NCBI RefSeq assembly: GCF_000244975.1
Contig: NZ_CM001440.1
Span: 3,270,325-3,334,324 of the forward strand
Source: Saccharomonospora cyanea NA-134
GTDB lineage: Bacteria > Actinomycetota > Actinomycetes > Mycobacteriales > Pseudonocardiaceae
Direction: 5' to 3'
DNA: 64,000 bases
The stretch's first letter is position 1. Each line of letters begins with the position of its first letter. Made by a program: the position numbers and the translations under genes. Positions 5,562-28,846 of the stretch are shown one piece after another. Below the pieces are notes generated by a model, which was not told where the DNA came from, ran no database searches, and worked only from the letters and a program-made list of their open reading frames with translations.

Positions 5562-5568
5562 GCTGGTT

Positions 5569-9434: not shown

Positions 9435-9455
9435 CGGACCCGGCATGACCGGGTT

Positions 9456-10019
9456 TCAGACGTTGCGTCCGCTCAGCATGTCCCTCACCCGGTCGACCAA
9501 CCCGGCACCGGGGTCGAGGATGCGGTTGGCGGGAGGAGTGTCCGGCGCCGACGGGTGCGGGCGCGTGGGCGCGGTGCGCTTCGCCATGACCACCTTCTCT
9601 CCCAGGTCGCGCAACTCCTGCTCGTCACAGGCGGCCCGCAGCTTGGGCAGGAGGTCCTTCTCCTCGTCCTCGATGTGGTGCCGGATCGAGTCGATGAGCT
9701 GGCGCACGAGACCGTCGAACTCCCGGTCGGTGGCCTCCATGCCCTCCAGCCGCTTCATGATCCGCTCCGCTTCGGAGTGCTCCTCGATCTCGTGGTCGGC
9801 GATCTCGTCACCGTTCTGCAGGCGACGGCGCGCGGCGGGGTACATGTGCTGTTCCTCCGCGACCGAGTGCCGCACGAGTTCGGCGATCACGTGGTCGACC
9901 AGCTGCTTGCGGCGCTGCGGCTCGACACCGGGCTCTTCGAGCTGGGCGAACACCTGTTCCACCTCGCGGTGGTCCTGAATGATCACATCGATCAGGTTCT
10001 GTTCCGAGGTACTCGTCAT
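9456..10019 (-). CDS. Hemerythrin (HHE) domain protein
   Basis: A 187-residue protein with the HHE cation-binding four-helix bundle. The metal-ligand pattern is visible: IIQDHREVEQVF in helix 1, VRHSVAEEQHMYP, then DHEIEEHSEAERIM, and SIRHHIEDEEKDLLP. Such proteins bind a di-iron centre that handles O2, NO or peroxide. Its last 45 residues are a disordered Pro/Arg-rich tail. It is monocistronic, with a terminator behind it, and lies between hisS and the sugar ABC genes without evident linkage to either. Confidence 0.88.
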   Translation of the reverse strand: MTSTSEQNLIDVIIQDHREVEQVFAQLEEPGVEPQRRKQLVDHVIAELVRHSVAEEQHMYPAARRRLQNGDEIADHEIEEHSEAERIMKRLEGMEATDREFDGLVRQLIDSIRHHIEDEEKDLLPKLRAACDEQELRDLGEKVVMAKRTAPTRPHPSAPDTPPANRILDPGAGLVDRVRDMLSGRNV

Positions 10020-10102
10020 CGTGGTGGGATCCCTTCGGCGTCACGGTCAGCGTTCAGCCGCGTACTACCCACGTCCGGCATCCGACAAACAGCGCGCCGT
10101 GC

Positions 10103-10948
10103 TCAGCGGCCGAAGCCCGCCGTCAGTCCACTGACGAGCTGCCGCCTGCCGAGGATGTACAGCGCGAGCACCGGCAACGTCGAGAGCACCACGGCCGCGA
10201 GCACGGCCGGGATGTTCACCGTGAACTGCCCCTGGAAGCTCCACAACGCCAACGGCAGCACCCGCTGGTCGGGACTCTGCGTGAGGATCAGCGGGAACAA
10301 AAAGCCGTTCCACACCTGCAGCGCGTCGTACACCGCCACGGTGACCACCGCGGGACGGGTGAGCGGCAGCACCAGGCTCCACACCATCCGCCAGTGTCCC
10401 GCACCGTCGAGCCGCATCGACTCGAACAGCTCACTCGGAACGTCACGCAGGAAGTTCGCGAGGATCACCACGGTCAGCGGGATCGCGAACGCCGCCGACG
10501 GCAGAATGATCGCCAGCAGGGTGTCGTAGAGCCGGGCCTGGGTGATGAGGTAGTAGACGGGAATGATCGTGGCCTGCAACGGGATGGCGAGCCCGAGCAG
10601 GAACGACCGGTACGTCAGCCGCGCCAGCCGGCCGTCGGCGCGCACCACGTAGTACGCGGCGAGCAACGACACGCCGACGGTGATGGCCACGGTCGCCAGC
10701 GTCACCACCACGCTGTTGCCGAGGTAGCGGAGGAAGTCGTTCTCCAGCACCAGCCGGTAGCTGTCGAGTGTGGGGTCGTCCGGCGGGGCCAGCGGGTTGG
10801 CCGAGAAGAACCCCTCCTGATCGCGCAGGCTGGTGATCACGACGTAGTACACCGGAACGAGCACCAGGAGCAGCCACGCGAACCCGGCGAGTCCACCCAG
10901 GACGTTGGGCCTGCTGTGGGCCCTGCTGCGAACGCCGGCCGCCATCAC
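10103..10948 (-). CDS. CUT1 sugar ABC transporter permease (second)
   Basis: A 281-residue inner-membrane permease of the MalG type, with six helices and the EAA loop ELFESMRLDGAGHWRMVW before helix 5 that contacts the ATPase. Last gene of the three-gene uptake operon. Its start overlaps the preceding permease stop by 4 bp, so translation is probably coupled. No ATP-binding gene follows. Actinomycetes commonly use one shared MsiK-type ATPase for many such systems. Confidence 0.9.
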   Translation of the reverse strand: MMAAGVRSRAHSRPNVLGGLAGFAWLLLVLVPVYYVVITSLRDQEGFFSANPLAPPDDPTLDSYRLVLENDFLRYLGNSVVVTLATVAITVGVSLLAAYYVVRADGRLARLTYRSFLLGLAIPLQATIIPVYYLITQARLYDTLLAIILPSAAFAIPLTVVILANFLRDVPSELFESMRLDGAGHWRMVWSLVLPLTRPAVVTVAVYDALQVWNGFLFPLILTQSPDQRVLPLALWSFQGQFTVNIPAVLAAVVLSTLPVLALYILGRRQLVSGLTAGFGR

Positions 10949-11859
10949 GCGCCCTCCAACTGGCTACCACGACGGAAGTTCGCCCAGCGGGACAGTCCGA
11001 GAGCGAGGGTGAGGCCGGTGACGACGAGCAGGACGGCGAGTGTGCTGGCCTTGCCCATCTCGTCACTGGAGAACCCGGTGAGGTACATGTGCAGGGGCAG
11101 TATTCGCGTCGCCTCACCGGGCCCGCCCCCCGTCAACACGAACACGAGGTCGAAGTACGTCAGCGAACCCACCGTCATCAACGTGGACGACGTGATGATC
11201 GTGTAGCGGAGCTGCGGCAGCGTGATGTGGAAGAACTGCCGGAATGTCCCGGCGCCGTCGAGCTGAGCCGCCTCGTACAGCGACGCCGGGATCTGCCGCA
11301 CCCCCGCCTGGTAGAGGAGGGTGTGGAACGGCACGAACTGCCACGCGACGACGAACACCACGACGTACAGCGCCAGATCCGAGTCTCCGAGCCAGTCCTG
11401 GGCGAGTGAGGTGGCACCGAACGCGAGACTCATCCCGAAGTTGGGGTCGAGCAGCGCCTTGAAGGCGATGGCGATGGCCGCCGACGACAGCAGCATCGGC
11501 AGGAAGTACAGCACCCCCAGCAGCGCCCGGTAACGGCCACGCCCGGCCACGAAGACGCCGAGCAGCAGCGAGATCGGTGTCTGCACCAACCAGCTGAACA
11601 CCATCACCTGGACGGAGAGCCAGATCGCGTTCAGTGTGGACGGATCGGTGAGCACGTCCGACCAGTTGGCCGACCCCGCCCACGTCATCTCCGAGATGCC
11701 GTCCCAGTGCACGAGGCTGAGCACCACCACCCCGGCCAGGGGCACCAGCGCGAACACGCCGAAGAACACCAGCGCGGGCGCCGCCATGACCGCGGACGGC
11801 CCGCTGCGGCGGGCGCCCGTACCGGCACCGGACACACGTGAATCGGCCACTGTCGTCAC
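10945..11859 (-). CDS. CUT1 sugar ABC transporter permease (first)
   Basis: A 304-residue MalF-type permease. It has a short cytoplasmic N-terminus, six membrane helices and the EAA loop ASLYEAAQLDGAGTFRQFFH. Starts at GTG 11859 within a GTGA overlap with the binding-protein stop, giving tight co-translation. With its partner it forms the channel for a sugar or oligosaccharide. The divergent GH3 glycosidase gene suggests the substrate is a plant-derived beta-linked oligosaccharide. Confidence 0.9.
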   Translation of the reverse strand: MTTVADSRVSGAGTGARRSGPSAVMAAPALVFFGVFALVPLAGVVVLSLVHWDGISEMTWAGSANWSDVLTDPSTLNAIWLSVQVMVFSWLVQTPISLLLGVFVAGRGRYRALLGVLYFLPMLLSSAAIAIAFKALLDPNFGMSLAFGATSLAQDWLGDSDLALYVVVFVVAWQFVPFHTLLYQAGVRQIPASLYEAAQLDGAGTFRQFFHITLPQLRYTIITSSTLMTVGSLTYFDLVFVLTGGGPGEATRILPLHMYLTGFSSDEMGKASTLAVLLVVTGLTLALGLSRWANFRRGSQLEGA

Positions 11860-13166
11860 TTCTGTTCGATCGTGGAGTCCATGGCGGTGCAGAACCGCTC
11901 CGGGGACAACTGCCCGGTGAACAACTGCTCCAGGTTCGTCAACAGCGCGTCCGCCTGCTTCGACGACAGCGCCTGGTCCCAGGAGAGCTCGAAGTTGGGC
12001 GCCTCGGCCGCCAGCTCGTAGACGAACGAGAGGTAGTCGGGGGCGTCCGTGGTGGACAGCCTGCTGTCGACGCCCTTCAGCGGTGGCACGGACCCGTTCT
12101 CCAGAAGCGTGTCGACGTAGCCGTCGTTCATGAGCCCGTCGGTGAGGTACGCGGCCACCGCCTCCTTCTCCTTCGGGGAGGCGTCGGCGCTGACCGCCCA
12201 GTAGTTCGCCGGGTTGCCGACGATGTTGGCGGGATCGCCCTCACCGCCGTCCACCGAGGGGAAGGTCGTGTAACCGAGGTGGCCGTCGGCGATGAACTGC
12301 GGTGCGGAGTCCTTGATGCTCGGGTAGGCCCACGACCCCATGAGGTACATGGCGGCCTTGTCGGTGTAGAGCAGGGCGGCGTCGGCGCCGCTGTCGGCCG
12401 CGATCGAGTTGTAGCCCTTGACGAACCCGCCCGCGTCGACGAGTTCCCGGATCATCTCCCCCGCCCGCCGCACGGCCGGATGCGACCACGCGCCGGGCTC
12501 GTTCGCCACGATGGCGTCGAACACCTCGGGGCCGCCGATCCGGTCGACCAGGTACTCCAGCCACATCAGTTGTGGCCACCTGCTCTGCCCACCGATCGCG
12601 AACGGCGCGATGCCCTCTTCCTGGAAGCGCGGGACGAGGTCCATGAGTTCGTCCCACGTGCGCGGAGGCTCGGCACCGACCCGGTCGAACAGCTTCTTGT
12701 TGTAGTACAGCAGCACCGGCTGCATGCCGTTGTTCGGCAGCGCGTAGGTCTCGCCGTCGACGACACCGGTGTCGAGCACCGAGGGCAGGAACCGGTCGGT
12801 GAGCTCGGTCTCGTCCTCGACCAGCTCCGAGATCGGGACGACCTTGCCCGCCTCGACCCAGTCGCGCAGGGTTCCGCCACCCCAACCGAAGATCAGCGTC
12901 GGCGCGCCACCGGCGCCGATGGAGGTGCGGATCTTCTGTTTGTAGGCGTCGTTGGCGAAGAACTCCGCGTTGATCGCGCGGTCGGGGCTGCCGCTGTTCC
13001 ACGACTCGAAGGAGCTGCGGATGGTCTGCTCGTCCCCGCCCGTGAGAGCCCAGGCGTTCGCACCCGATCCCCCGCCCGGCCCGCTCGTGCCGCACGCGGC
13101 GGACAGGGTCAGCACCGCCGCCGCTCCCACCGCGAGCAGTCCCGTACGTCTCGTACCCAGTGCCAT
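11856..13166 (-). CDS. Sugar-binding lipoprotein of CUT1 ABC transporter
   Basis: Extracytoplasmic solute-binding protein, 436 residues, family 1. ATG at 13166 begins a lipoprotein signal peptide (ALGTRRTGLLAVGAAAVL) ending in the lipobox LSAACG, so the mature protein starts at Cys and is membrane-anchored. The body has the family's PNNGMQPVLLYYNKKLF hinge segment and the MYLMGSWAYP loop. First gene of the uptake operon, divergent from the lacI-type gene. Two identical palindromes lie in the shared promoter region, so repression by that LacI protein, released by the sugar, is the likely control. The layout recalls the Streptomyces bxl xylobiose locus. Confidence 0.9.
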   Translation of the reverse strand: MALGTRRTGLLAVGAAAVLTLSAACGTSGPGGGSGANAWALTGGDEQTIRSSFESWNSGSPDRAINAEFFANDAYKQKIRTSIGAGGAPTLIFGWGGGTLRDWVEAGKVVPISELVEDETELTDRFLPSVLDTGVVDGETYALPNNGMQPVLLYYNKKLFDRVGAEPPRTWDELMDLVPRFQEEGIAPFAIGGQSRWPQLMWLEYLVDRIGGPEVFDAIVANEPGAWSHPAVRRAGEMIRELVDAGGFVKGYNSIAADSGADAALLYTDKAAMYLMGSWAYPSIKDSAPQFIADGHLGYTTFPSVDGGEGDPANIVGNPANYWAVSADASPKEKEAVAAYLTDGLMNDGYVDTLLENGSVPPLKGVDSRLSTTDAPDYLSFVYELAAEAPNFELSWDQALSSKQADALLTNLEQLFTGQLSPERFCTAMDSTIEQK

Positions 13167-13190
13167 GACGCGCCTTCCTCGTCGAAGGGT

Positions 13191-13204
13191 CCGAAAGTTT
13201 TCGG
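13191..13204. promoter_or_regulatory. LacI-type operator, copy 1
   Basis: CCGAAAGTTTTCGG, a palindrome with half-sites CGAAA/TTTCG, 25 bp upstream of the binding-protein start. It shares 13 of 14 bases with copy 2 exactly 100 bp away. It fits a LacI-family site controlling the sugar operon. Confidence 0.75.
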
Positions 13205-13290
13205 AAAACACTATGGTGTGGATACGCACCCTAGAAGCGCCGGAATCCAAGGTCAAGAGTCGACTTCCTGGCATTTTCGGTTATAGTTGT

Positions 13291-13304
13291 CCGAAAGTTT
13301 TCGA
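13291..13304. promoter_or_regulatory. LacI-type operator, copy 2
   Basis: CCGAAAGTTTTCGA, the second copy, 21 bp upstream of the lacI-type start, suggesting autoregulation. The 100-bp spacing would allow looping between the two sites. Confidence 0.75.
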
Positions 13305-13324
13305 AAATCAAAGCGGAGGTTGCG

Positions 13325-14377
13325 GTGCCGAGTGGTTCCAGCGCCCGACGACGAGCGACGCTGGCAATGGTGGCCGAGGCGGCGGGCGTGTCCCTCCCCA
13401 CGGCGTCCAAAGTGCTCAACGGCCGCGGTGACGTGGCCTCCTCGACCCGCGCCCGGGTCGAGGAGGCCGCTCGCGAACTCGACTACGTTCCCCCGGTCGG
13501 CAGGCGCAGTGTGACCCCCGCGCGAGTCGTGGACCTGGTGTTCGACGACCTGGTGAGCCCCTACTCACTGGAAGTGCTGCGCGGTGTCACCGAGGCGGGC
13601 ACCGAAGCGGGCGTGGACGTCGTCGTCAACCGCATTCCGACGGACGACGGCGAACGGGCTTCGTCGTCCTCTCCGGACGGATGGGCCAACCGCCTCAAGG
13701 CCGCGGGGCGCGAGGGCATCATCATCGTCACCTCGGAGCTGACCGAGGAACAGGTGGACGCCTTCGACCGGGCCGGCCTGCCACTCGTGGTGATCGACCC
13801 GCTGAACCTGCCGAGGGTGGACGTCACGAGCGTGGGCGCCACCAACTTCTCCGGCGGACTCTCCGCCACCGAACACCTGCTGTCCCTCGGACACCGCCGG
13901 ATCGGGTTCGCGGGCGGGCCGGTGCGGGCGGCGTGCGGGCAGGCACGCCTGCACGGCTACCGGGCGGCGCTGGAGAAGGCCGGCGTCCCGCCGGAGGCGG
14001 AACTGGCCCTGCACGGCGCCTTCAGCTACCCCGCCGGACTGGAGATGGGCAGCCGCCTGCTGGATTCGCCCGAACCACCCACCGCAGTGTTCGCGGCCAG
14101 CGACACCACCGCACTCGGCGTGATCGAAGCCGCCCGCCGGCGCGGGCTGCGCGTGCCCGACGACCTCAGCGTGGTCGGCTTCGACGACACCATCCTGGCC
14201 ACGCTCGCCACACCCGCCCTGACCGTGGTCCGGCAGCCGCTGCTCGACATGGGCCGGGTCGCGCTCCGCACCCTGTTGCGGCTGGCGGCGGGCGAGTCCC
14301 TGGATTCCCACCACGTCGAGCTGGCCACGCAGCTCGTCGTGCGCGACTCGACAGCACCTCGACGAGGAGAACGATGA
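13325..14377 (+). CDS. LacI-family transcriptional regulator
   Basis: A 350-residue repressor. The N-terminal helix-turn-helix reads ATLAMVAEAAGVSLPTASKV with the hinge helix LNGRGDVASSTRARV, followed by a periplasmic-binding-protein-like sugar-sensing domain (GHRRIGFAGGP, FAASDTTALGV, SVVGFDDT). GTG at 13325 follows GCGGAGG. It overlaps the GH3 gene by 4 bp, so regulator and enzyme are co-translated. It probably represses both itself with the glycosidase and the divergent ABC operon through the twin palindromes. Confidence 0.93.
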   Translation: MPSGSSARRRATLAMVAEAAGVSLPTASKVLNGRGDVASSTRARVEEAARELDYVPPVGRRSVTPARVVDLVFDDLVSPYSLEVLRGVTEAGTEAGVDVVVNRIPTDDGERASSSSPDGWANRLKAAGREGIIIVTSELTEEQVDAFDRAGLPLVVIDPLNLPRVDVTSVGATNFSGGLSATEHLLSLGHRRIGFAGGPVRAACGQARLHGYRAALEKAGVPPEAELALHGAFSYPAGLEMGSRLLDSPEPPTAVFAASDTTALGVIEAARRRGLRVPDDLSVVGFDDTILATLATPALTVVRQPLLDMGRVALRTLLRLAAGESLDSHHVELATQLVVRDSTAPRRGER

Positions 14378-16692
14378 CCGACAAGCCCTGGCACGACACG
14401 TCGGCCGACCCGGCCCGGCGCGCGCAGGCCCTGCTGGCCGAGATGACGCTGGAGGAGAAAGTCGCACAGCTGGGCAGCGCGTGGCCCGGCAACGAGCAGG
14501 TCAGCGGCAACGTCGCCCCCATGCAGGACGTCTTCTCGCAAGGGGCCGCCACGTTCGAGCAACGGCGCGAGCACGGGCTCGGGCACCTCACGCGCGTGTT
14601 CGGCACCGCGCCGGTCGACGTGGCCGACGGCACCGCACGGGTCGTGAAGCTTCAGCGGGACATCGTGGACAACACCAGGCTCCGGGTACCCGCGATCGTG
14701 CACGAGGAATGTCTGACCGGGTTCACCACCTACGGCGCGACGGTGTACCCGGCGCCGCTGGCGTGGGCGGCCACGTTCGATCCCGAACTCGTGGAGCGGA
14801 TGGCGGCCGCGATCGGGGCGGACATGCGTGCGGTGGGAGTTCACCAGGGGCTCTCCCCGGTGCTGGACGTCGCGCGTGATCACCGCTGGGGCCGCGTGGA
14901 GGAGACCCTCGGCGAGGACCCCTACCTCGTGGGCATGCTCGGCAGCGCCTACGTGCGCGGGCTGCAGAGCGAAGGCGTGATCGCCACGCTGAAACACTTC
15001 GCGGGCTACTCCGCCTCGCGGGCAGCACGCAACCACGCGCCGGTGCCGATCGGGCCCCGGGAACTGCGTGACGTCATCCTCCCGCCGTTCGAGATGGCGG
15101 TGCGGGACGCGGGCGCGGGCTCGGTGATGAACGCCTACGTCGACCTCGACGGTGTGCCCGCCGCCGCCGACGCCACGCTGCTCACCGGCGTGCTGCGCGA
15201 CGAGTGGGGGTTCGAGGGCACGGTGGTGTCGGACTACTGGGCGGTCGCCTTCCTCGCGACCATGCACCGGGTGGCCGACGGCGCCGCCGACGCCGGTGCG
15301 CTCGCCCTCGCGGCGGGCATCGACGTCGAACTGCCCGACGCCCTGTGCTACGGGGCGGAACTGGTGGAGCGGGTCCGCCGCGGTGAGGTCGACGAGGCGC
15401 TGGTCGACCGCGCCGCGATGCGCGTGCTCCGGCAGAAGGCCGAGCTCGGCCTGCTCGACCCCGACTGGACACCGGAGTCGGACGTGGACTCGTCGGTGGA
15501 CCTGGACGCCGGGGCGCATCGGGAGCTGGCGCGCCGTATCGCCGAGCGGTCGGTCGTGCTGCTGGCCAACGACGGCGTGTTGCCGCTGGCGGCGGAACAC
15601 CGGCGGATCGCGCTCGTCGGCCCGTGCGCCGACGACCCACTGGCCTTCCTCGGCTGCTACTCCTACCCCAACCACGTGCTGCCGCGCTACCCCGGGCTGG
15701 GGCTCGGGATCGAGGTGCCGTCGCTGGTCGAGGCACTGCGCGCCGAACTACCGGACGCCGAGATCACCGCCGTGCCGGGTTGCGGAGTCAACGACGACGA
15801 CCGGTCGCGGTTCGCCGAGGCCGTCACCGCCGCCGACGGTGCCGACGTGTGTGTGGCCGTCGTGGGTGACCGGGCGGGACTGTTCGGTGAAGGCACCTCC
15901 GGCGAGGGTTGCGACGCTCCCGACCTGCGGCTGCCCGGGGTACAGGAGGAGCTGCTGTCCGCGCTGCTCGCCACGGGAACCCCCGTGGTGGTCGTGGTGG
16001 TCTCCGGCCGCCCGTACGCGCTCGGAGCCCACGCCGACCACGCCGCCGCCGTCGTGCAGGCGTTCCTGCCCGGCGAGGAGGGCGGCGCCGCACTGGCCTC
16101 CATCCTGTCCGGGCGCACGGCACCGTCGGGCCGCCTTCCCGTGCAGGTCCCCCGGCATCCCGGCGGGCAACCGGCGACCTACCTTCATCCGCCGCTGGGC
16201 GGCAACAGCCAGGGCATCAGCAACCTCGACCCGACTCCGGCGTTTCCGTTCGGACACGGCCTGTCGTACACGACGTTCGACTACGGCGGCCTCACCGTCA
16301 GCGCCGAGCAGGTGCCCACCGACGGGACCCTCGACATCGCCGTCGACGTGCGCAACAGCGGTGAGCGGGCGGGCTCCGAGGTGGTCCAGCTTTACCTCGA
16401 CGACGTGCAGGCCCAGGTGACCCGGCCGGTCCGGCAACTCGCCGGCTTCGCCCGGGTCGATCTCGCACCGGGCGAGACCGCGCGGGTCACCTTCACCCTG
16501 CACGCCGACCGCACGAGCTTCACCGGGCGTGACCTGGGCCGCATCGTGGAGCCGGGCCGGATCGACGTCCACGTGGGCCGCTCGGTGGCGGACCTGCCGT
16601 GCTCGGCGTCGTTCGAGCTGACCGGCCCGGTCCGGAACGTAGGCCACGACAGGGTGCTCACCACACCGGTGACCGTGACCATCCGGGGGTGA
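14374..16692 (+). CDS. Glycoside hydrolase family 3 (beta-xylosidase/beta-glucosidase type)
   Basis: A 772-residue exo-acting beta-glycosidase without a signal peptide, so it acts in the cytoplasm on imported oligosaccharides. The GH3 N-terminal barrel has the substrate-binding DHRWGRVEETLGEDP and LKHFAGYSAS motifs and the nucleophile Asp287 in VVSDYWAV. The C-terminal sandwich domain begins near RSVVLLANDGVLPL, and a fibronectin-III-like domain closes the protein (RAGSEVVQLYLDD). It resembles Streptomyces BxlA. Xylose or glucose specificity cannot be decided from sequence alone. A strong hairpin follows. Confidence 0.92.
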   Translation: MTDKPWHDTSADPARRAQALLAEMTLEEKVAQLGSAWPGNEQVSGNVAPMQDVFSQGAATFEQRREHGLGHLTRVFGTAPVDVADGTARVVKLQRDIVDNTRLRVPAIVHEECLTGFTTYGATVYPAPLAWAATFDPELVERMAAAIGADMRAVGVHQGLSPVLDVARDHRWGRVEETLGEDPYLVGMLGSAYVRGLQSEGVIATLKHFAGYSASRAARNHAPVPIGPRELRDVILPPFEMAVRDAGAGSVMNAYVDLDGVPAAADATLLTGVLRDEWGFEGTVVSDYWAVAFLATMHRVADGAADAGALALAAGIDVELPDALCYGAELVERVRRGEVDEALVDRAAMRVLRQKAELGLLDPDWTPESDVDSSVDLDAGAHRELARRIAERSVVLLANDGVLPLAAEHRRIALVGPCADDPLAFLGCYSYPNHVLPRYPGLGLGIEVPSLVEALRAELPDAEITAVPGCGVNDDDRSRFAEAVTAADGADVCVAVVGDRAGLFGEGTSGEGCDAPDLRLPGVQEELLSALLATGTPVVVVVVSGRPYALGAHADHAAAVVQAFLPGEEGGAALASILSGRTAPSGRLPVQVPRHPGGQPATYLHPPLGGNSQGISNLDPTPAFPFGHGLSYTTFDYGGLTVSAEQVPTDGTLDIAVDVRNSGERAGSEVVQLYLDDVQAQVTRPVRQLAGFARVDLAPGETARVTFTLHADRTSFTGRDLGRIVEPGRIDVHVGRSVADLPCSASFELTGPVRNVGHDRVLTTPVTVTIRG

Positions 16693-20363: not shown

Positions 20364-21263
20364 TCAACTCTCCTGCCTGGTGACCAGCTCCACGGCCCGC
20401 TGACGCGCGTCCTCCCCCACGTCCGGCACCGCGTAGTCACGGCGCCGGATGTGGGCCAGCAACTCGGGATCCGGCGCCACATCGTGCTCCCGCAGGTAGT
20501 ACGCCACCGCGCCCGGCCACACCCACGCCCCATCCGTGCGGAACGTCAACGGCACCGACGGCGGCCGACCCCGATCGAACGCGTCGGTGTCGTAGCTCCG
20601 CGCCGCCAGCACCACCGGAGCCCCACCGAGGTAGTCGAGCACCCGATCCTTCTCCGCCGGGTCCAACGGCGGTCGGTTCACCACCGGCCGACCGTCCCCA
20701 CCGAGCCCGTCAAAGACCTTCGACAAACGCAACTCGCCGAATTCGCCGGTCCCAGCCGCAGGTGCCTGCGCGAGCGGCACCGTGGACGGCCGCCCTCGCT
20801 GTTCGGGCCCGATGGTGGAACCCAGCTCGGCACGCTGACGCAGCCACGCGGGAAGGTGGGCGTCGTCGCGCGGGTGCATCCGCAGCTCGTCCTGGAAACC
20901 GAGGGGAGGCGGAGTCCGCCGCCAGCGGGGTTGAGCGTGATGAACGAAATCGGCATGTGTGGTCCCCGGCGGGTCGACGGTCAACATCGCGCTCAGCCAG
21001 GTACCGCGCCCCGGCTCGTACATCCCGGTGCGTAGCTGCCCGAGCAGGCTCACGACCTCGGCCGGAGGACGCATGGGCACCGGCGAGCCGTCCGCGCCGA
21101 ACACCGTCACATCGACTTCCACGTGTTTGCCGACGCTGCGGTACTCGCTCAGCAACTGGGTCCACCCGGTCGGAGCGACACCGGCGAGCAGCGCCCCGAT
21201 CCGATTCACCAGCTCCTCCCGTTGCCGGTCGTTCAGCGGCCCCACTGGGTACGTCATGACCAT
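20364..21263 (-). CDS. YezG-family immunity protein with an extra C-terminal domain, third paralogue
   Basis: 299 residues. Residues 1-150 form the YezG-like domain (GMYEPGRGTWLSAMLTVDPP; then RMHPRDDAHLPAWL). A linker leads to a second domain of about 95 residues (VVLAARSYDTDAFD, then VPLTFRTDGAWVWPGAVAYY and AHIRRRDYAVPDV). I recall this second domain, without a known function, from other actinobacterial T7SS-associated proteins. The start could be ATG 21263 or 21257, both within reach of AGGAG. Lies between the TNT-fusion gene (174 bp upstream) and the last immunity gene. Confidence 0.7.
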   Translation of the reverse strand: MVMTYPVGPLNDRQREELVNRIGALLAGVAPTGWTQLLSEYRSVGKHVEVDVTVFGADGSPVPMRPPAEVVSLLGQLRTGMYEPGRGTWLSAMLTVDPPGTTHADFVHHAQPRWRRTPPPLGFQDELRMHPRDDAHLPAWLRQRAELGSTIGPEQRGRPSTVPLAQAPAAGTGEFGELRLSKVFDGLGGDGRPVVNRPPLDPAEKDRVLDYLGGAPVVLAARSYDTDAFDRGRPPSVPLTFRTDGAWVWPGAVAYYLREHDVAPDPELLAHIRRRDYAVPDVGEDARQRAVELVTRQES

Positions 21264-21437: not shown

Positions 21438-22571
21438 TCACTCGGTGCTCTCCCCGTCCACGCTCGACGGGCGAGTGGTCGCCTGTGGGATCTCCTCGAG
21501 AGCCCCTGATGAAAGCAGGTCACCCACCGACCGCTCGAGCACGTACGCGGTGCCCCCTCCGGCCTGGTCGTGCCATGGCACAACCTGCCCCATGACCGCG
21601 CGGATCGAACGCAAGACCCGGTAGACGTGGTACTCACGGTGCACCTCGTCGGCGGGCTGCGACCGATGGGTGAACTCGGTGCGCGCCGCGAACACGGTGT
21701 TGCCTGCAGGGTCGCCGTAACGGTCGAGCTCGGTACCCGGCGACACAGTCACCAGCCGCTTCCCGCCGTAGTAGTTCAGTCCCCGATCACCACCCACCGG
21801 CTGGATCGGCCATTCCTCGGTCGCACGCCTCGCGTCCAGCGGTAGTTCGTCGCGGAAGGCATCGCGGCGCAGGGACAGGTGTCCGACGAAGTATCGTGCG
21901 GCCTGTTCGGCTGTGGCGAACTCCGCCCTTGCCAGCTGTTGCTCCCCCAGAGCCAGGAACACAGCCCATCGCGAGTCCTCGCGCACCAGGCACCAGGCAC
22001 CGTCCGCGACTTCGCCGACACGGTAGGACCGCGGGTCCACCTCGAGTTCCGCCGCCACGCTCTCGGCCCGGCGTAGCGCTTCCTCGGGGTTCAAGCCGTC
22101 CTCGAGAGTCGCGAGCACGGGCCTGCTGAGCCTGGCCGCGAACCAGTCCGGCACCATGCCCTCGTCTCGCGGATACCGCGTCAGTTCTCGGGTGAACGCG
22201 CCGGGTGGTGGCTCACCGTCCCAGTCGGGTTCATCGTCCCACCGGTACCGGACCTCGATCCGCCCGTCGAGCGCGACCGTTCCGGACAGCTCGAACCAGG
22301 TCCCGCGCCCCTCCTGGTACATCAGCTGCCGCAGCCGTGCCAGGTACTGGGCGACATCGGCGGGCGGCGTCCACAGATAGAGGTTGCCGTCGGTCACGCG
22401 CCGCAACATCACCACCAGTTCGGTGTGGTCGCCGAGCGCGCGGTAGGTCAAGAACGCCCCGGCCCAGTCGGTCGGCGCGAAATGAGCCACCAGGGCACCC
22501 ACCCCACCGAGCACTTTGTCTTCGCCGGCCCTGCTCAAAGCTGAGGTCGGGAGCCTTACGTCACCCGTCAT
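21438..22571 (-). CDS. YezG-like domain fused to a TNT (NAD glycohydrolase-type) domain
   Basis: 377 residues in three parts. Residues 1-155 are YezG-like (LMYQEGRGTWFELSGTVAL; later TRYPRDEGMVPDWFAARL). Residues about 165-240 form a small domain (VADGAWCLVREDSRWAVF; AEQAARYFVGHLSL) often seen before TNT domains. The C-terminal 120 residues match the tuberculosis-necrotizing-toxin fold: SPGTELDRYGDPAGN, RSQP, YHVYRVLRSI, VVPWHDQAGGGTAYVLE and a final SVGDLLSSGALEEI. The Arg in LDRYG and Gln in DQAGGG correspond to residues needed for NAD cleavage in TNT. No signal or WXG segment. Start overlaps the upstream immunity gene by 4 bp. An immunity-type module joined to a toxin-type module is unexpected. 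Confidence 0.75.
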   Translation of the reverse strand: MTGDVRLPTSALSRAGEDKVLGGVGALVAHFAPTDWAGAFLTYRALGDHTELVVMLRRVTDGNLYLWTPPADVAQYLARLRQLMYQEGRGTWFELSGTVALDGRIEVRYRWDDEPDWDGEPPPGAFTRELTRYPRDEGMVPDWFAARLSRPVLATLEDGLNPEEALRRAESVAAELEVDPRSYRVGEVADGAWCLVREDSRWAVFLALGEQQLARAEFATAEQAARYFVGHLSLRRDAFRDELPLDARRATEEWPIQPVGGDRGLNYYGGKRLVTVSPGTELDRYGDPAGNTVFAARTEFTHRSQPADEVHREYHVYRVLRSIRAVMGQVVPWHDQAGGGTAYVLERSVGDLLSSGALEEIPQATTRPSSVDGESTE

Positions 22572-23014
22572 CGAGTCCCATCCCCCTCGTCCGCCTCAGC
22601 CAGTCTCATCCTGAGCCACTCGGGCATATGGTCGCCGTCCCGAGGGAAGGCTTCGAGATCCGCCCGCCAACTCGATGCGGGAACATCCGGCTCCCACAAC
22701 GGGTCCCAGTCCAGGTTGTAGGTCAGGTTCATCCGTCCGGGAGGTTCGAGCGTCCATCGTGCCGAGAACCACGTTCCCCTACCCTCGCGGTACATCTCCT
22801 CCCTGAGCTGCAACACCGGTTCGAGGATCGCCTCGGGCAGTGGCACCGCAGGCGAGCTCCCATCGGCCAGCAACACCGTGAGTGCGAGGTCGTGTGCATC
22901 GGAGACGACCTTGCACCTGAAGTCGATCCGCAGCCAACCACCGTCGACGGCATCGAGCAACATGAACCCGATCCGGCGGTCCAGGGCCTCTCCTGGCTCC
23001 TCGCTTGCAGTCAC
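22568..23014 (-). CDS. YezG-family immunity protein, first paralogue (cognate candidate)
   Basis: 148 residues, the immunity gene nearest the toxin, 42 bp after its stop, and so the best candidate for the cognate inhibitor. It shows the family block EMYREGRGTWFSARWTLEPP, NLTYNLDWDPLW and AFPRDGDHMPEWLRMRL. It starts at GTG 23014 with AAGGA about 11 nt upstream; the only nearby ATG runs at once into a stop. In B. subtilis, YezG binds and blocks the YeeF nuclease domain, the same nuclease type as here. Confidence 0.75.
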   Translation of the reverse strand: MTASEEPGEALDRRIGFMLLDAVDGGWLRIDFRCKVVSDAHDLALTVLLADGSSPAVPLPEAILEPVLQLREEMYREGRGTWFSARWTLEPPGRMNLTYNLDWDPLWEPDVPASSWRADLEAFPRDGDHMPEWLRMRLAEADEGDGTR

Positions 23015-23056: not shown

Positions 23057-26000
23057 TCACGGCACACTCTGCGCACTGGCCGGATCGTTCGGGAAGCTCC
23101 GGATGCGCACGGTCCGCACCCCGCCGACTTCCTCGATCCATCGTACTTGCAGCTCGTGTGGCACCCGGCTGCCGTCTCGCAGGGCGAAGACCTCCATTCG
23201 CTCGATCGACGTGTCGTCTCTTTGCAGAAAGCGGATCAGATCGTCCTCAAAGGATCGCCAGTGCATGCCGTCGAGATCGAGTTGGGCGTTCTGGACCCGC
23301 CACTGGGCGACCATATTGATCAACTCTCCCGGGCCGCTCAGCTGGTTGGCGTACATGTGGCCGCCGTCGTACTTGTTCCGCATGCGCCCGGTGTCAGTGC
23401 CGTCGGCCTTGATCCACTTCTCCTTGCCGTCGATGCCACCCGCCGTCTTCTGCGCCGTTTCGTCCTGGCGGACGAGATCGTCCTTCTTCACCACTTCCAC
23501 GTCGTGGGTCGACCCCGCGACCGTGTCGGTCCGGTAACTCCTGACACCATGAGTCGGCGTCACCTCCGGCCCTGTCTCGTACACATACCGGCCGCCGTCG
23601 ACGTTGTAGACGACGCGAGGCGCGGGCTTGTTCAGGTCCGGGTGATGCGGCTGGTAGGTCTCCGCGACCGCGATCTGTCCGTTCGAGTCCGTCCAGTACA
23701 CCGCACGAACCTTGGTGACGGTGCCGTCGCGGTCCTCGTAGTCGCTGTGGACGACATACTGCCGGTTGGGTTCGAGCGTCCGCCCGTCGAAGAAGGATTC
23801 CTTCTGACTGAGCGTGACGTCCTCGCGCACCGCGTTGTCGAACAGGTCGCGTTCGTGGTCGGGCAGGTTCACGTCGCTGGGCGGCGAGTCCGGGTCGAAC
23901 CGCTGGCGGAGCCGGACCTCCGGGTTGCGCACCGAGGCGTCCTCCGCGAGCCGGTGAAGGCCCGCGAAGTCCGGGTTGGTGCGCATGAGACGGCCCGAAT
24001 CGACATCCGCCCAGCGCACTCTCCCCTCGCCGTCGGTGTAGAACCGGCCGCGGTAAACGCCTTGCGAGTCGTGCACCTCGTACTCGCGGTGCGGTTCGAG
24101 GTCTTTACGTGTCACGAACGGCTGGCCTGGCCTCGGAGGCTTCGGCGGCCCCGGCGGGATGGCGACCCGGTTCTCGTCCGGGTAGTCGGGCCGCTCGAAC
24201 GTGACGGCGGGTTCCGGCATGCCGTCGGCGTCCGTGTGGAAGACCTGGTGCTGCCCTTCGATCTCCACCCGCAACGTCGTGTTCGGCGGCGGATGCGCCA
24301 CGTCAGGATTCGGTTTGTAGTCGTCGTTCGGGCTTCCGTCCCGGTTCCTCGGAGGCACGTTGTCCACGGACGTGTCGATGTGCGTGACCCGACCCCGGTC
24401 GTCGGTGTGGTAGGTGCCGCGCAGAGTGCCGTCGTCGTTGCGCACCTCGTACGAGGTGTTCGCTTCCAGCTGCCGGTCCCCGGGGAACGACTCGTCGCGC
24501 CTCGGTGGCCGAATCCCGTTCGCCTCCCCGTGAGCGATCCGGTCCGGCCGGTTGTTCGTTGGCGGCTCGAAATCCCGCACGGCCTGCGGAGTCTCCCGCC
24601 GCCTTCTGCTGTACTCGGGATCGCGAAGCTGCGCCTCCTGTACACGTGACTTCGGGTTGCGGTTGGGGTGATCGCTGTCCGGGTCAGCGGGCTGGTCCGG
24701 ACTCGGTCGCCGGTTCGGTGCGTCAGGATCAGGGGGACCGTCGCCGCTTCCTCGTGCGCGCGAGGTGTCGGTGGACACGTCACCCTTGTGCGCGTCCGCG
24801 GTGTCCGGGGTGAAGCCGTCGTCACTCGCACGGGTCGTGGAGCCGTCGGGGCTGTGCGTCGACCACTCGCCGTTCGGTGGGATCTTCGGGCGGGGCTTGC
24901 CGTCCGGGCCGATCTCGTAGTCGGAACTGAAGACGTTGCCGTTCGAGTCGGTCCACGCGGGCTTGTTCGGCGCCAGGACCTCGGTGTCCAGCTCCCGCGA
25001 CAGGCGCTGCGCGAAGTCGTTCGAGCTCGCGTCGCAGCCGATGAGCCGGATCGGACGGCCAGCGACATCACCGTAGTCGCCGTTGCGGCGCAGGATCTCG
25101 GCGAACTCCTCCGGAGAGTACTCCCGGTTGCCGATACGGGCTTTGCCCTCCGGCGTGACGTGCACGTCCACGGTGTAACGGCCGTCCGGATCGGGTTTGA
25201 CCCGATGCGGCAGGTCGCCCATCTCCGGGTCGCCACGGTGGAACGACGTGCCCGCCGGGGTGCGTTCGGCGTGCCGCTGGTTGACCTGCTCGGGGGTCGG
25301 CCGGTCGTCGTTGCCGTGCGGATCGCGGTCGTCCGGCTTCTCGCTCCGATCGCCGTCGCGGTCGTGAGGATCGCGGTTGTCGGGGTTGCGGTCGTGCCGG
25401 TCGCCATGACGCGGGTCGTGGTCGTCCGGCCGGGAGTCGTGGTCCCGCGGTCCGCCGTCCCGGCCGTCGTGGTCCGGGCGTCGGTACGGAGGCTGGCCAC
25501 TGTCACCGCTGCTCCGGTCCGGGGCGAGGCCGTGCGACGGCCGTTGCGGCGGGACGCCGGCGTCGGGGCGCCCTGGCGGGTTCGCTCCCGGCTGGTTCGG
25601 GCGCGGTGCGTGCGGGCCCCGCGGCGCGTGCGGCTGTTGGGGCCCCGGACCGTGCGCAGGGGGGTGGGTGTGCGGGCCCGGTCCCGCATCCGGCGACGGC
25701 CCGAAAGGCCGGCCGTCCGGCTGCACGTGCGGCGGGTTCGCCGGTCCGGGCTGCGAGGTGAAGCCCCTCGGCGCGTGCGGTGGCGTGGGTGCGTGTGCCG
25801 ACGGGGTCGGCCGCGGCCCCCGCACGTGGGTTTCCGGCGCGGGCCCCGGCCGGTGTGGGCCGGGCTGCGGGTGGTGTCCCTGAGGGCGCGTCGGCGGCCG
25901 GTGGGGCGGGCCGTCGGGACCCGGCCGGGTCGGCGGAACATCGGCGTGCGGCCTCGCCCCCGGGCTGCCGGGAGTGCCGGTCCAGTCTCGCGGGGAACCG

Positions 26001-27973
26001 CCGCGACCGCCGGGTGCGCTGCTCGGTGAGTTCCCTCCCGGAGAACCGTGGTGGGCCGGACCGCCCGCCATCGGCTGCGGAGAGTTCTGTGTGGACGGCC
26101 CGGCGTCCGGACCACGTTGCGGCGTCGGGGAAAAGCCGTCCGTCCTCGGCGCCGCCGGGGTCGACGACGGGGAGGACGGCGACGTGGCCAGCCCACTCGT
26201 CGTGGTGCTGTCGGTGTGATGTGCCCCGCTCGGCCGGGGCCCTCCCGGGTCCGCGTGCGCAGGACCGGGCGACTGGTGGCTCGGCGTGTGCGGTGCGTTC
26301 GGGGAACCGGGAGAGTTGTGCGGTGAGGACGAAGGACTGTCCGCGCGAGGCGGCGCCCCCGGGTCCGAACCGCCAGGGCTGCTTGGCGTCGAGTGGCCCG
26401 GCGTGGACGGAGCCGGTCGATCGCCCGACGGCGAGTTCGGAGCCGACGTGTCGGGTGACGGAGTGGACGACGTCGGGTGAGAGGGTGTCGGATGGGATGC
26501 CGCCGGGCTCGCCGCCGGTCCGGACGTGTCGGGCGACGGCTGCGAGGAATACGGGTTCTGTGTGGTCGATGTGCTCTGATAGTCGCTCGTCGGACGGCCG
26601 CCCGCGTTCGCGGAGTCGTTCGCTCCTACCGTGTTCGGTGTGTCGCTGCGCAGTGTGCTCGGTGAGCCGCCGTCACCGCCGCGCCCACCCGGCGAGCCCG
26701 GTGAGGTCGCGGGGGAACCGGAGTCACCGGTGTTGCCGCGCGGCGACTCCGACGTCGAGTCGTCACCACCACGGTCGGAACCCGGACGTGACGAGTCCGG
26801 CGCACTGCCGCCACCATCCGACGTAGCCCCCGGGCTTGAGCCGCCATCCGAACCACGGTCCCCTGAACCGCCCTCCGCGCCGTCGCTCTGCGAACCACCG
26901 TTTCCACCGGAAGTTCGGTCGCTTCGAGGACTGTTGCCGCTCGGATTCGCGTCCCCGCCGGAACCGGAATCACCGCCCGACCCGTCGCCGCCGTCCGAAT
27001 CAGACCCACCGGATCCCGAGCCACCGTCCGAACCGGAACCGCCGTTCGAGCCGGATCCACCCGAGCCGCTGCCGTTGCCACCGAGGTCGGGACCGTCACC
27101 GCCGCGGCCGAGCCGCTGGACGAACCCGCCGTCGATGATGTTCTTCGTGTCGATGACGTCCAGGCCGGTGACCTTGCCCATGATCTTGCCGCACACCTTC
27201 ATGATGGAACCGAAGACGTCGGCGAGTTTGCCCAGCAGCGGCGAGACCCTGCGGATGCTCTCGGTGAGCTTCTTGAGCAGGTCGGCGATCTTGGTCGCCC
27301 ACTTCGCGATCGCCGTGACGGCCTGCGCCACCACGACCGGCGTGCCGAACCCCAGCGTGCACACCGTCTCCAGCACCCAGGAGATGAGCTTGCCGACCAG
27401 GTCGGCGATGAGGTCACGCACCGTCTCCCTGACGAACGCCACGACCTCACCGAAGATCATCACCACGGTGCTGATGGCCCCGGCGGTGGTGGCCGCGCCC
27501 GCGATGGTCTCCTCCTGCTCCTTGCAGGAGGCGCGGTAGGCGTCGGCGGCCTCGCCCGTCCACCCGGTGGTGCCGTTCTTCACCGCGTTGGCGAAGGTGA
27601 CCTGGGTTTCCTCCAGATGTTTGGCAACGTTGGCCCACGTCTCGGAGTACGACTGGATCACCGGCGGGTCGCCGCAGACCGAGTCGAGCATGTCCTTCAG
27701 CGGCTGGACGTGCTCCATCAGAAACGACGCCACCGACGACATCAACCAACCGAACGGATCGATCGCGGCGGCGGCGCCCTCGGCGGCGAGCCCGAGCACA
27801 CCGAGCCCACCCTCGATCCAGTTGCCCTCCTGGATCCCGTTGAACGCGTCGATGGCCGATTCGGCGACACCGATGCCCGTCGCCCACCCGTGGTCGCCGT
27901 TGCCCGAGGTCAGCGGGCCGGGACCGGCACCGTCCTGCGGCGCCTCCGCGACGAGTGGGTTCCCCTCAGGCAT
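23057..27973 (-). CDS. T7SS-type polymorphic toxin with C-terminal DNA/RNA non-specific nuclease
   Basis: 1638 residues. The N-terminal 290 are helical with a WXG-type motif (W138-T-G140 in GTTGWTGEAADAY) and several hydrophobic helices. Residues about 295-900 are low-complexity: Gly/Ser/Asp-rich, then Pro/Ser-rich, then Asp/Arg/His-rich. Residues about 905-1010 hold a domain common in actinobacterial toxins (SFHRGDPEMGDLPHRVKPDP; RPIRLIGCDASSNDFAQRL). Three related modules follow near 1168, 1292 and 1400 (LEPxxxYEVxxxxG, then RGxFYTDxxGRV). The last 110 residues are an NS_2-type nuclease (YDGGHMYANQLSGPGELINM, with the GH catalytic pair). Its start overlaps the EspC-like gene by 8 bp. Probably exported by an ESX/T7SS machine encoded elsewhere and used against other cells. 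Confidence 0.88.
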   Translation of the reverse strand: MPEGNPLVAEAPQDGAGPGPLTSGNGDHGWATGIGVAESAIDAFNGIQEGNWIEGGLGVLGLAAEGAAAAIDPFGWLMSSVASFLMEHVQPLKDMLDSVCGDPPVIQSYSETWANVAKHLEETQVTFANAVKNGTTGWTGEAADAYRASCKEQEETIAGAATTAGAISTVVMIFGEVVAFVRETVRDLIADLVGKLISWVLETVCTLGFGTPVVVAQAVTAIAKWATKIADLLKKLTESIRRVSPLLGKLADVFGSIMKVCGKIMGKVTGLDVIDTKNIIDGGFVQRLGRGGDGPDLGGNGSGSGGSGSNGGSGSDGGSGSGGSDSDGGDGSGGDSGSGGDANPSGNSPRSDRTSGGNGGSQSDGAEGGSGDRGSDGGSSPGATSDGGGSAPDSSRPGSDRGGDDSTSESPRGNTGDSGSPATSPGSPGGRGGDGGSPSTLRSDTPNTVGANDSANAGGRPTSDYQSTSTTQNPYSSQPSPDTSGPAASPAASHPTPSHPTSSTPSPDTSAPNSPSGDRPAPSTPGHSTPSSPGGSDPGAPPRADSPSSSPHNSPGSPNAPHTPSHQSPGPAHADPGGPRPSGAHHTDSTTTSGLATSPSSPSSTPAAPRTDGFSPTPQRGPDAGPSTQNSPQPMAGGPAHHGSPGGNSPSSAPGGRGGSPRDWTGTPGSPGARPHADVPPTRPGPDGPPHRPPTRPQGHHPQPGPHRPGPAPETHVRGPRPTPSAHAPTPPHAPRGFTSQPGPANPPHVQPDGRPFGPSPDAGPGPHTHPPAHGPGPQQPHAPRGPHAPRPNQPGANPPGRPDAGVPPQRPSHGLAPDRSSGDSGQPPYRRPDHDGRDGGPRDHDSRPDDHDPRHGDRHDRNPDNRDPHDRDGDRSEKPDDRDPHGNDDRPTPEQVNQRHAERTPAGTSFHRGDPEMGDLPHRVKPDPDGRYTVDVHVTPEGKARIGNREYSPEEFAEILRRNGDYGDVAGRPIRLIGCDASSNDFAQRLSRELDTEVLAPNKPAWTDSNGNVFSSDYEIGPDGKPRPKIPPNGEWSTHSPDGSTTRASDDGFTPDTADAHKGDVSTDTSRARGSGDGPPDPDAPNRRPSPDQPADPDSDHPNRNPKSRVQEAQLRDPEYSRRRRETPQAVRDFEPPTNNRPDRIAHGEANGIRPPRRDESFPGDRQLEANTSYEVRNDDGTLRGTYHTDDRGRVTHIDTSVDNVPPRNRDGSPNDDYKPNPDVAHPPPNTTLRVEIEGQHQVFHTDADGMPEPAVTFERPDYPDENRVAIPPGPPKPPRPGQPFVTRKDLEPHREYEVHDSQGVYRGRFYTDGEGRVRWADVDSGRLMRTNPDFAGLHRLAEDASVRNPEVRLRQRFDPDSPPSDVNLPDHERDLFDNAVREDVTLSQKESFFDGRTLEPNRQYVVHSDYEDRDGTVTKVRAVYWTDSNGQIAVAETYQPHHPDLNKPAPRVVYNVDGGRYVYETGPEVTPTHGVRSYRTDTVAGSTHDVEVVKKDDLVRQDETAQKTAGGIDGKEKWIKADGTDTGRMRNKYDGGHMYANQLSGPGELINMVAQWRVQNAQLDLDGMHWRSFEDDLIRFLQRDDTSIERMEVFALRDGSRVPHELQVRWIEEVGGVRTVRIRSFPNDPASAQSVP

Positions 27974-28274
27974 CGGTACCTCGCATCGCGTCGCGGTAGC
28001 CCTCGTCCGCCGCCTGGTACCGCTGCGCGGCCGAGCGCACCTTGTCGGCCGTGGCCTGCATCGCCTTGACGGAGTCGCGCAGCGCGTCGATGCCGTACTG
28101 CTCCACCGGGTCGAGCAGCATCCGGAACGGTTGGCAGAGGATGCCGTACGCGTCGGTGGGCATGCTGACCTGCTGCGCGGCCTCCAGAGCCTGCGTCAGC
28201 TGGTCGGCGACCCCGTCGAGCTGCGTCGCATGTGCTTCGAGATCCGCGCCGACCTCGAACCCGCCCTCTGGCAT
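27966..28274 (-). CDS. EspC-like T7SS-associated small helical protein
   Basis: 102 residues, all-helical, without Trp-X-Gly. It resembles the ESX-1 EspC/DUF2580 group (FEVGADLEAHATQLDGVADQ at the start; DALRDSVKAMQATADKVRSA near the end). Such proteins pair with or precede T7SS substrates and may act as a co-secreted helix-bundle partner. ATG at 28274 has a GGGGG site upstream. Translationally coupled to the toxin by an 8-bp overlap, so it is most likely its secretion partner. Confidence 0.75.
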   Translation of the reverse strand: MPEGGFEVGADLEAHATQLDGVADQLTQALEAAQQVSMPTDAYGILCQPFRMLLDPVEQYGIDALRDSVKAMQATADKVRSAAQRYQAADEGYRDAMRGTDA

Positions 28275-28300: not shown

Positions 28301-28846
28301 TCAGGAAAGGATGGAGCGGCCGCCGAAATCGTCGTCGTCCTCGGGTGGGCGGCGGCGAGTGGTCGGCCGCGGCGGAGGCGGCGTGGCCGGTCGCGCCGGA
28401 GGTGCCTGCGGTGGGGTGTCGTCCTCCTGGGGACCGAACCTCAGTTCGTGGTCGTCGGGCTGCGGGTGGTCGTCAGCGGGCGGTTCGGGGAACGTCTTCC
28501 TGGCCTCCTCGAAGACCTTCGCCGCGGTCTGGTCCTCGGTGCCGACGGTCTCGGCCATCGCCTGCTGGAGGAGTTCGGGGATGCGGGCCTGCGCGGCCTG
28601 CACAGTCCGCATGATCTGAGCCGACAGCTCTGCCATGCGCTTGCTCTGCGCGCTGTCGGCGATGGTCAGACCGGTGAGCAGTCCCTTGGAGTCGACGGTC
28701 ACCTCGACGGTGTTGTCGGGCGAGCGTTCGGTGACCGAGATCTCCTGCACGCGCGCCGCCATCGCCTGGTAGCGCTGCGCCTGCTCCTGAACCCGCCGGG
28801 TCCAGTTGTCGATCATGCGGTCACTGGCGTCCACGCCGTCGGTCAT
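28301..28846 (-). CDS. YbaB/EbfC-family protein of the toxin operon
   Basis: 181 residues. The first 115 match the YbaB/EbfC nucleoid-associated fold: a long helix (RVQEQAQRYQAMAARVQ), a beta-sheet stretch with DNTVEVTVDSKGLLTGLTI, and a second long helix (AELSAQIMRTVQAAQARIPELL). The last 65 residues are Pro/Asp-rich and disordered. ATG at 28846 is preceded by GAAGGA. YbaB-like genes at the head of actinobacterial T7SS-substrate operons are common, and their role there is unknown. It is the first gene of this operon, 26 bp before the EspC-like gene. Confidence 0.78.
   Translation of the reverse strand: MTDGVDASDRMIDNWTRRVQEQAQRYQAMAARVQEISVTERSPDNTVEVTVDSKGLLTGLTIADSAQSKRMAELSAQIMRTVQAAQARIPELLQQAMAETVGTEDQTAAKVFEEARKTFPEPPADDHPQPDDHELRFGPQEDDTPPQAPPARPATPPPPRPTTRRRPPEDDDDFGGRSILS

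What the first reader, a model, noticed from the sequence alone, without database searches (positions are those of the whole stretch)
21438..22571. Immunity-like YezG domain fused to a TNT NAD-glycohydrolase domain
The second array gene joins an inhibitor-type domain to a toxin-type domain. Arg in LDRYG and Gln in DQAGGG correspond to TNT functional residues, so the domain may be active. Possibilities: a toxin guided by binding a nuclease, an NAD-depleting suicide response triggered when the YezG part meets incoming toxin, or a toxin whose own immunity gene is the next one.
Basis: partly seen in the sequence, partly recalled or inferred. Interest (0 to 1): 0.85.

Follow-up and report, generated by a model that had tools for sequence, protein, structure and literature searches.

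The report
Immunity protein with dead toxin domain
An actinobacterium makes a protein that joins an antidote-type domain against a DNA-cutting toxin to a copy of an NAD-destroying toxin domain that seems to have lost its key catalytic residues, so it looks more like a composite antidote than a suicide toxin.

Summary

"Active NADase" is not supported. None of 102 fused rows has the Gln, and 128 of 129 in a wider set lack it. Fused TNT folds form one clade (100/99). The domain is under purifying selection.

The fused YezG domain co-diverges with the nuclease about as strongly as the dedicated YezG gene, and one congeneric genome keeps the trio with no nuclease match. Best reading: a composite immunity protein, an anti-nuclease domain plus a pseudo-TNT binding module whose partner is unproven. 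Longer YezG-X-M-TNT relatives are widespread in Pseudonocardiaceae (domain X in 93 of 110 genomes).

The parts
21438..22571 (-). Gene 2: YezG/EsaG-fold domain + M + pseudo-TNT, 377 aa
22107..22547 (-). YezG/EsaG-fold domain Y2 (about residues 9-155)
21852..22103 (-). Domain M (about residues 157-240), no Pfam family or convincing PDB sequence relative found
21477..21818 (-). TNT-fold domain (about residues 252-365), catalytic aromatic and Gln replaced
21720..21722 (-). Codon of Arg284 (place of AfNADase Arg129), kept
21546..21548 (-). Codon of Ala342, at the place of catalytic Gln194 of AfNADase
22568..23014 (-). Gene 1: stand-alone YezG/EsaG-like protein Y1, likely dedicated immunity protein; overlaps gene 2 by ATGA
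20364..21263 (-). Gene 3: YezG/EsaG-like domain Y3 + domain X (X about 20367-20741), 299 aa
19795..20367 (-). Gene 4: YezG-like domain only (start more likely ATG at 20241, by eye)
23057..27973 (-). T7SS-type polymorphic toxin: WXG100_2-like N terminus (below its cut-off), low-complexity middle, Endonuclea_NS_2 nuclease at the C terminus
27966..28274 (-). EspC-like T7SS protein
28301..28768 (-). YbaB/EbfC-like protein (the part scanned; the ORF listed is longer)

Best explanation
Gene 2 encodes a composite immunity (antidote) protein, not a toxin. Its EsaG-type domain binds the nuclease domain of the T7SS toxin two genes upstream, alongside the dedicated YezG protein of gene 1. Its C-terminal TNT fold is a pseudo-NADase: it keeps the Arg that contacts NAD phosphates but has lost the catalytic aromatic and Gln, and is kept as a binding module. 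In relatives whose T7SS toxin carries both a TNT with the full catalytic set and a nuclease, the chain Y-X-M-pseudo-TNT is the only candidate antidote seen behind the toxin. Shown: folds, gene order, loss of catalytic residues, one clade, purifying selection, co-divergence with the nuclease, retention without the toxin in one genome. Inferred: nuclease binding and inhibition; that the pseudo-TNT counters TNT-type toxins (about 0.3 by itself).
For: Folds. Toxin/Y1/Y2-M-T/Y3-X in 14 loci including the window. Catalytic loss: none of 102 fused rows has the Gln (some genes are there twice from two sources); in a wider set of 162 distinct strings 128 of 129 fused ones lack it, while of 33 unfused ones 15 have Gln (each with an aromatic at the other place), 8 Arg, 6 Ala, 3 Ser, 1 a gap. 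Clade: 67 rows, 100/99. Residue roles: PMC7955114 passages, PMC6398120 section 11, PMC8092274 passage. Co-divergence with the nuclease over 14 loci: r 0.90 Y1, 0.87 Y2, 0.78 T, 0.64 each for Y3, M, X; partial given T 0.74 (Y1) and 0.63 (Y2), p 0.0005 each; 0.17 Y3 (p 0.0485), 0.10 M (p 0.22), 0.31 X (p 0.005). T domain dN 0.061, dS 0.62 between the window and G366, one pair. G286 keeps Y, Y-M-T and Y-X with no nuclease match at E 0.01 in its genome. Catenulispora has Y-Y-M-T with no toxin in the fetched flanks. Lentzea and Actinokineospora: toxin with full TNT set and a nuclease-like end, followed on the same strand only by Y-Y-X-M-T.
Against: The window's toxin has no TNT match, so its pseudo-TNT has no evident target here. 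Most long Y-X-M-TNT genes have no such nuclease in their flanks and sit in conserved chromosomal surroundings, which fits a housekeeping role better than ordinary immunity. G750 has a nuclease 94% but a Y2 only 58% identical to the window's. G746 has the nuclease with Y, Y and Y-X but no Y-M-T, so Y-M-T is not required. Loss of residues is not a measured loss of activity; a Tyr765 mutant of TNT keeps residual activity (PMC6398120). The permutation test does not fully remove shared ancestry.
Confidence: 0.55

Rival explanations
1. Housekeeping NAD/ADP-ribose sensor: the Y-X-M-TNT family is mainly a core regulatory protein whose pseudo-TNT binds NAD or ADP-ribose, and the cassette version was recruited to toxin operons.
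For: Domain X in 93 of 110 and TNT in 95 of 110 family genomes. Conserved surroundings. Arg129 equivalent present in all 102 fused rows. ADP-ribosylglycohydrolase genes between two family members in Amycolatopsis.
Against: Y2 co-diverges with the nuclease. Family members also lie behind T7SS-type toxins and beside genes that look like T7SS genes in a Thermomonosporaceae contig (names by eye).
Confidence: 0.17
2. T7SS adaptor: the YezG domain holds the nuclease partly unfolded for export and the pseudo-TNT docks to the secretion machinery.
For: Same gene order with the toxin in 14 loci; EsaG deforms EsaD (abstract of PMC9616950).
Against: G286 keeps the trio without a nuclease match; G746 has the toxin without Y-M-T.
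Confidence: 0.1
3. Active suicide NADase: the YezG domain senses incoming nuclease and releases the TNT domain, which empties the cell of NAD.
For: TNT fold with Arg284 and Arg303 kept; no separate TNT antidote recognised in the operon.
Against: Catalytic aromatic and Gln replaced in gene 2 and through the family; mutation of F137 or Q194 inactivates AfNADase (PMC7955114).
Confidence: 0.08
4. Second warhead: gene 2 rides on the nuclease by its YezG domain and is exported with it to poison the target.
For: YezG domain tracks the nuclease.
Against: TNT fold looks dead; no T7SS signal domain found by Pfam.
Confidence: 0.04

Closest known systems
EsaD-EsaG (Staphylococcus aureus) and YeeF-YezG (Bacillus subtilis)
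   Same: T7SS nuclease toxin followed by DUF600/EsaG-fold genes; strings of non-identical esaG genes and orphan esaG without esaD (PMC9484751, abstract and passages)
   Different: Here one EsaG-fold copy is joined to M and a TNT fold, another to X; WXG100-type toxin; sequences below the PF04634 cut-off
TNT / Ntox40 NAD glycohydrolases (CpnT C-terminal domain, AfNADase)
   Same: Fold, DRxG motif with catalytic Arg, second Arg
   Different: Catalytic aromatic and Gln replaced; joined to immunity-type domains; separate clade
Polyimmunity proteins and Imm36 (Zhang et al. 2012, PMC3482391)
   Same: Several immunity domains in one chain; the tables list Imm36 (DUF600) with Tox-NucA and with Ntox40 in actinobacteria (passages)
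   Different: The passages seen name no YezG-TNT fusion, no catalytic loss and no Y-X-M-TNT family
Dual immunity Tdi5a/Tdi5b against nuclease Tde5 (PMC13392607, abstract and outline seen)
   Same: Two immunity proteins for one nuclease toxin
   Different: There structurally distinct proteins; here both have the EsaG fold and one carries a pseudo-toxin domain

Membership tests
EsaG/YezG (DUF600, Imm36) immunity family | EsaG/BH3703 fold | tested here: met
EsaG/YezG (DUF600, Imm36) immunity family | PF04634 sequence profile | tested here: inconclusive
   No match for gene 2; 13 of 49 homologues match below cut-off, best E 0.024; the genome's only listed match, E 0.717, is in a relative's Y domain
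EsaG/YezG (DUF600, Imm36) immunity family | Encoded beside an EsaD/YeeF-type nuclease toxin | tested here: met
   Endonuclea_NS_2 in the toxin, E 1.2e-6, 29.2 bits against a cut-off of 27; same order in 13 further loci
EsaG/YezG (DUF600, Imm36) immunity family | Binds and inhibits the nuclease | not testable with these tools
   Only indirect: co-divergence
TNT NAD glycohydrolase toxin | TNT fold / PF14021 | tested here: met
TNT NAD glycohydrolase toxin | Catalytic Arg (R129 in AfNADase, R757 in TNT) | tested here: met
   Arg284
TNT NAD glycohydrolase toxin | Catalytic aromatic (F137) and Gln (Q194) | tested here: not met
   Thr292 and Ala342; none of 102 fused rows has the Gln; 128 of 129 lack it in a wider set
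TNT NAD glycohydrolase toxin | NAD hydrolysis | not testable with these tools
   Needs an assay
TNT NAD glycohydrolase toxin | Export domain (WXG100-like) in the same chain, as in T7SS TNT toxins | tested here: not met
   No such Pfam match in gene 2; contrast the L006 protein
Polyimmunity protein | Two or more immunity domains in one chain | tested here: inconclusive
   Two EsaG-like domains in Y-Y-M-T relatives (8 ORFs); in gene 2 only Y2 has a known immunity fold, M and pseudo-TNT unproven

The most novel reading that the evidence does not exclude
A dead toxin domain has been turned into an antidote: an old pseudo-TNT clade, chained to an anti-nuclease EsaG domain and two uncharacterised domains (X, M), protects actinobacteria against T7SS toxins that carry both an NADase and a nuclease, and has become a near-core gene of Pseudonocardiaceae.
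Probability: 0.27. Interest if true: 0.75.

Novelty: new variant of a known kind. Interest (0 to 1): 0.55.

Why it matters
TNT-domain genes are in 95 of 110 genomes sampled of the window's family, and by their Pfam name they would be read as necrotizing toxins. Of the TNT domains examined here (a sample biased by the query), 128 of 162 distinct strings are joined to Y, X or M and lack the catalytic Gln. If they are pseudoenzymes, annotation by domain name misleads for a whole family, and the locus allows a direct test of whether a dead toxin fold can serve as immunity. The set toxin, Y1, Y2-M-T, Y3-X, with natural losses in G286 and G746, is also a good system for testing layered immunity against one nuclease.

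Tried and rejected
Assembly artefact: rejected; the fusion is in named genomes of Amycolatopsis, Prauserella, Saccharomonospora and Catenulispora.

Recent capture of the neighbouring toxin's TNT: rejected; fused TNT folds form their own clade, away from the TNTs of the toxins beside them in L051, L076 and L094.

Fused YezG domain tracking the nuclease better than the dedicated one: an apparent result that came from a wrong Y1 row for L044 (a short downstream fragment had replaced it). After correction Y1 and Y2 are alike. The Y1 figures are not used.

Rows dropped or doubtful: one search's counts for fused TNTs left out rows with Gln by construction, so searches are used for the claim of loss. 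The nine unfused rows with Ala or Ser fall, as far as they are on the tree, inside the fused clade; most come from short fetched flanks or broken frames. The 8 Arg rows include one gene twice (p6 and L002).

Full report
WHAT IS THERE. The ORF 21438-22571 (minus strand, 377 aa) exists as described. It is the second of four YezG-like genes behind a 1638-aa T7SS-type toxin (23057-27973) with a WXG100_2-like N terminus (E 1.2e-4, below its cut-off) and an Endonuclea_NS_2 nuclease at the C terminus (E 1.2e-6, over its cut-off); EspC-like and YbaB-like genes precede the toxin. Gene 2 overlaps the stand-alone YezG gene by the four bases ATGA. Gene 3 is YezG plus an unknown domain X; gene 4 is YezG only. 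The four YezG-like domains share a clear core, and their profile finds them and two further genes in the 5.4-Mb genome. The genus is not given by the tools; I take it to be Saccharomonospora, because the 'same genus' genome G748 has a contig of 469,981 bases, as does Saccharomonospora sp. NB11 of L061.

THE TNT DOMAIN LOOKS DEAD. PMC7955114 (passages) reports that mutagenesis of R129, F137 and Q194 inactivated AfNADase. For M. tuberculosis TNT, Gln822 and Tyr765 mutations reduce activity, with residual activity for Tyr765, and R757A has none detectable (PMC6398120, section 11); H792N with Q822K was used as a detoxified form (PMC8092274, passage). The printed alignments put R129 on Arg284 and R148 on Arg303, but F137 on Thr292 and Q194 on Ala342; the Gln of DQAGGG (Gln336) falls on Gln188. 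That Tyr765 and Gln822 are the same places as Phe137 and Gln194 is my reading of spacing, not a computed alignment. Among TNT folds joined to Y, X or M, none of 102 rows has the Gln (18 YMT, 82 YXMT, 2 YYT). In a wider set of 162 distinct strings, 128 of 129 fused ones lack it; of 33 unfused ones 15 have Gln (each with Phe, Tyr or Trp at the other place), 8 Arg, 6 Ala, 3 Ser and 1 a gap. So unfused TNTs do not all keep it: the CpnT-type proteins of this family carry Arg. On a tree of 89 rows every row with Y, X or M except L141 falls in one clade of 67 rows (100/99), with all 15 Gln rows outside (few columns, many forks unresolved). The domain is not decaying: between the window and G366, dN/dS is 0.061/0.62 for T, 0.10/0.55 for Y2 and 0.10/0.53 for M (one pair).

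THE FAMILY. A pattern scan of the collection of 84,980 species' genomes with the fusion alignment gave 335 stretches, 326 of them relatives; the best 80 (79 loci) were kept. In these, 73 ORFs in 62 loci have the order Y-X-M-T, and 14 loci have Y-M-T or Y-Y-M-T. Y and X lie close together, while the X-M and M-T linkers vary from 8 to 1653 and from 5 to 1136 residues. Of 110 genomes of the window's family, 95 have a TNT match and 93 a match to X (41 of 46 genera); across the phylum 10 of 296 and 8 of 296. X also occurs without TNT, as in gene 3. Long Y-X-M-T genes have conserved surroundings: one class near a DNA polymerase III alpha-type gene (41 loci) and a folD-like gene (33 loci), another next to a tRNA nucleotidyltransferase-like gene (15 loci) (the polymerase by Pfam, the other names by eye).

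THE CASSETTE. Toxin, Y1, Y2-M-T, Y3-X is found in 14 loci including the window, in several with Y1 and Y2 joined as Y-Y-M-T. In the genus, Y-M-T is in 5 of 12 genomes. The nuclease query, run on the other 11, matched G366, G750, G748 and G746; with the own genome 5 of 12 have it. G286 has Y, Y-M-T and Y-X beside what look by eye like the same metabolic genes as in the window, but no nuclease match at E 0.01 in its genome. G746 has the nuclease with Y, Y and Y-X but no Y-M-T. Orphan antidotes in strains without the toxin are known for esaG (PMC9484751, passage).

CO-DIVERGENCE. Distances of the nuclease over 14 loci correlate with those of Y1 (0.90), Y2 (0.87), T (0.78), and Y3, M and X (0.64 each). 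Given T, partial correlations are 0.74 (Y1), 0.63 (Y2), 0.17 (Y3), 0.10 (M), 0.31 (X), with permutation p 0.0005, 0.0005, 0.0485, 0.22 and 0.005. Two reduced sets of 7 and 8 loci keep Y1 and Y2 above the rest. So the fused YezG domain behaves like the dedicated antidote. Against: G750, with a nuclease 94% identical to the window's, has a Y2 only 58% identical. Shared ancestry is not fully removed by the permutation.

THE TWO-WARHEAD TOXINS. The first two have a WXG100_2 N terminus; L051 is cut at its start. In L076 and L094 the gene directly behind the toxin is Y-Y-X-M-T, and the gene after that is on the other strand; in L051 it is Y and then Y-X-M-T. If those TNTs are active and their antidotes adjacent, the antidote should lie in this chain. 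This is the main ground for an anti-TNT role, and it is indirect.

HOW IT MOST LIKELY WORKS. Gene 2 binds the nuclease through its EsaG fold, as EsaG does (abstract of PMC9616950), giving a second layer of immunity. The pseudo-TNT is a binding module, perhaps against TNT-type toxins of others, perhaps for NAD or ADP-ribose. The first step is supported by several lines; the second is inference.

WHAT IS KNOWN. Zhang et al. 2012 (PMC3482391, passages and section 39) list Imm36 (DUF600) with Tox-NucA and with Ntox40 in actinobacteria, describe polyimmunity proteins, and list Imm35 as fused in some instances to ADP-ribosyl glycohydrolase. Ntox40 is TNT (PMC9503650, passage). I found no paper that names a YezG-TNT fusion or a catalytically lost TNT in one (searches; open-licence library only; additional files of the 2012 paper not read). 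So the domain association is known; the pseudoenzyme clade, the Y-X-M-TNT family and the cassette logic appear new.

Noticed in passing
L103, L104, L105, L107, L113, L115, L121, L124, L130 (Amycolatopsis), roughly 500-9500: Between two Y-X-M-TNT genes lie proteins clustered with Imm35 + ADP-ribosylglycohydrolase fusions and, in some, a stand-alone ADP-ribosylglycohydrolase (Pfam-scanned only in L103 and L130; clusters): an apparent NAD/ADP-ribose immunity island near a pcnA-like gene.
   Followed up: partly
L007:4739-6682 and L048:3398-5326: The pcnA-adjacent Y-X-M-TNT class has also lost the second Arg and the DQ-type Gln in many members and has an extra N-terminal domain without Pfam match. 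From memory, M. tuberculosis cpnT also lies near pcnA.
   Followed up: partly
L006:5546-7636 (own genome) and L164, L174, L176, L179, L180: A WXG100_2 + TNT protein of the CpnT type (both domains scanned in L006 only); TNTs of this branch carry Arg at the place of the catalytic Gln and Val for the aromatic, so they may not be standard NADases either.
   Followed up: partly
L069:1474-7958 (uncultured Thermomonosporaceae): Y and Y-X-M-TNT genes lie directly beside genes that look by eye like EccB and WXG100 T7SS genes, outside the main family.
   Followed up: no
L212:6947-8952 (G286): Three or more YezG-like domains in tandem in a genome without a detectable match to the window's nuclease: a homogeneous polyimmunity locus.
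   Followed up: no
L070 and L071, about 7300-15700 (Streptoalloteichus): Clusters of Y, Y-M-T, Y-Y-T, Y-X-M and Y-X-M-T genes, an expanded set of the same modules.
   Followed up: no
window 23057-27973, part before the nuclease: A segment with a GCDAS-type motif, also seen by eye in the toxins of L051, L076 and L094, resembles the caspase-like processing domain of polymorphic toxins (recalled, not tested).
   Followed up: no
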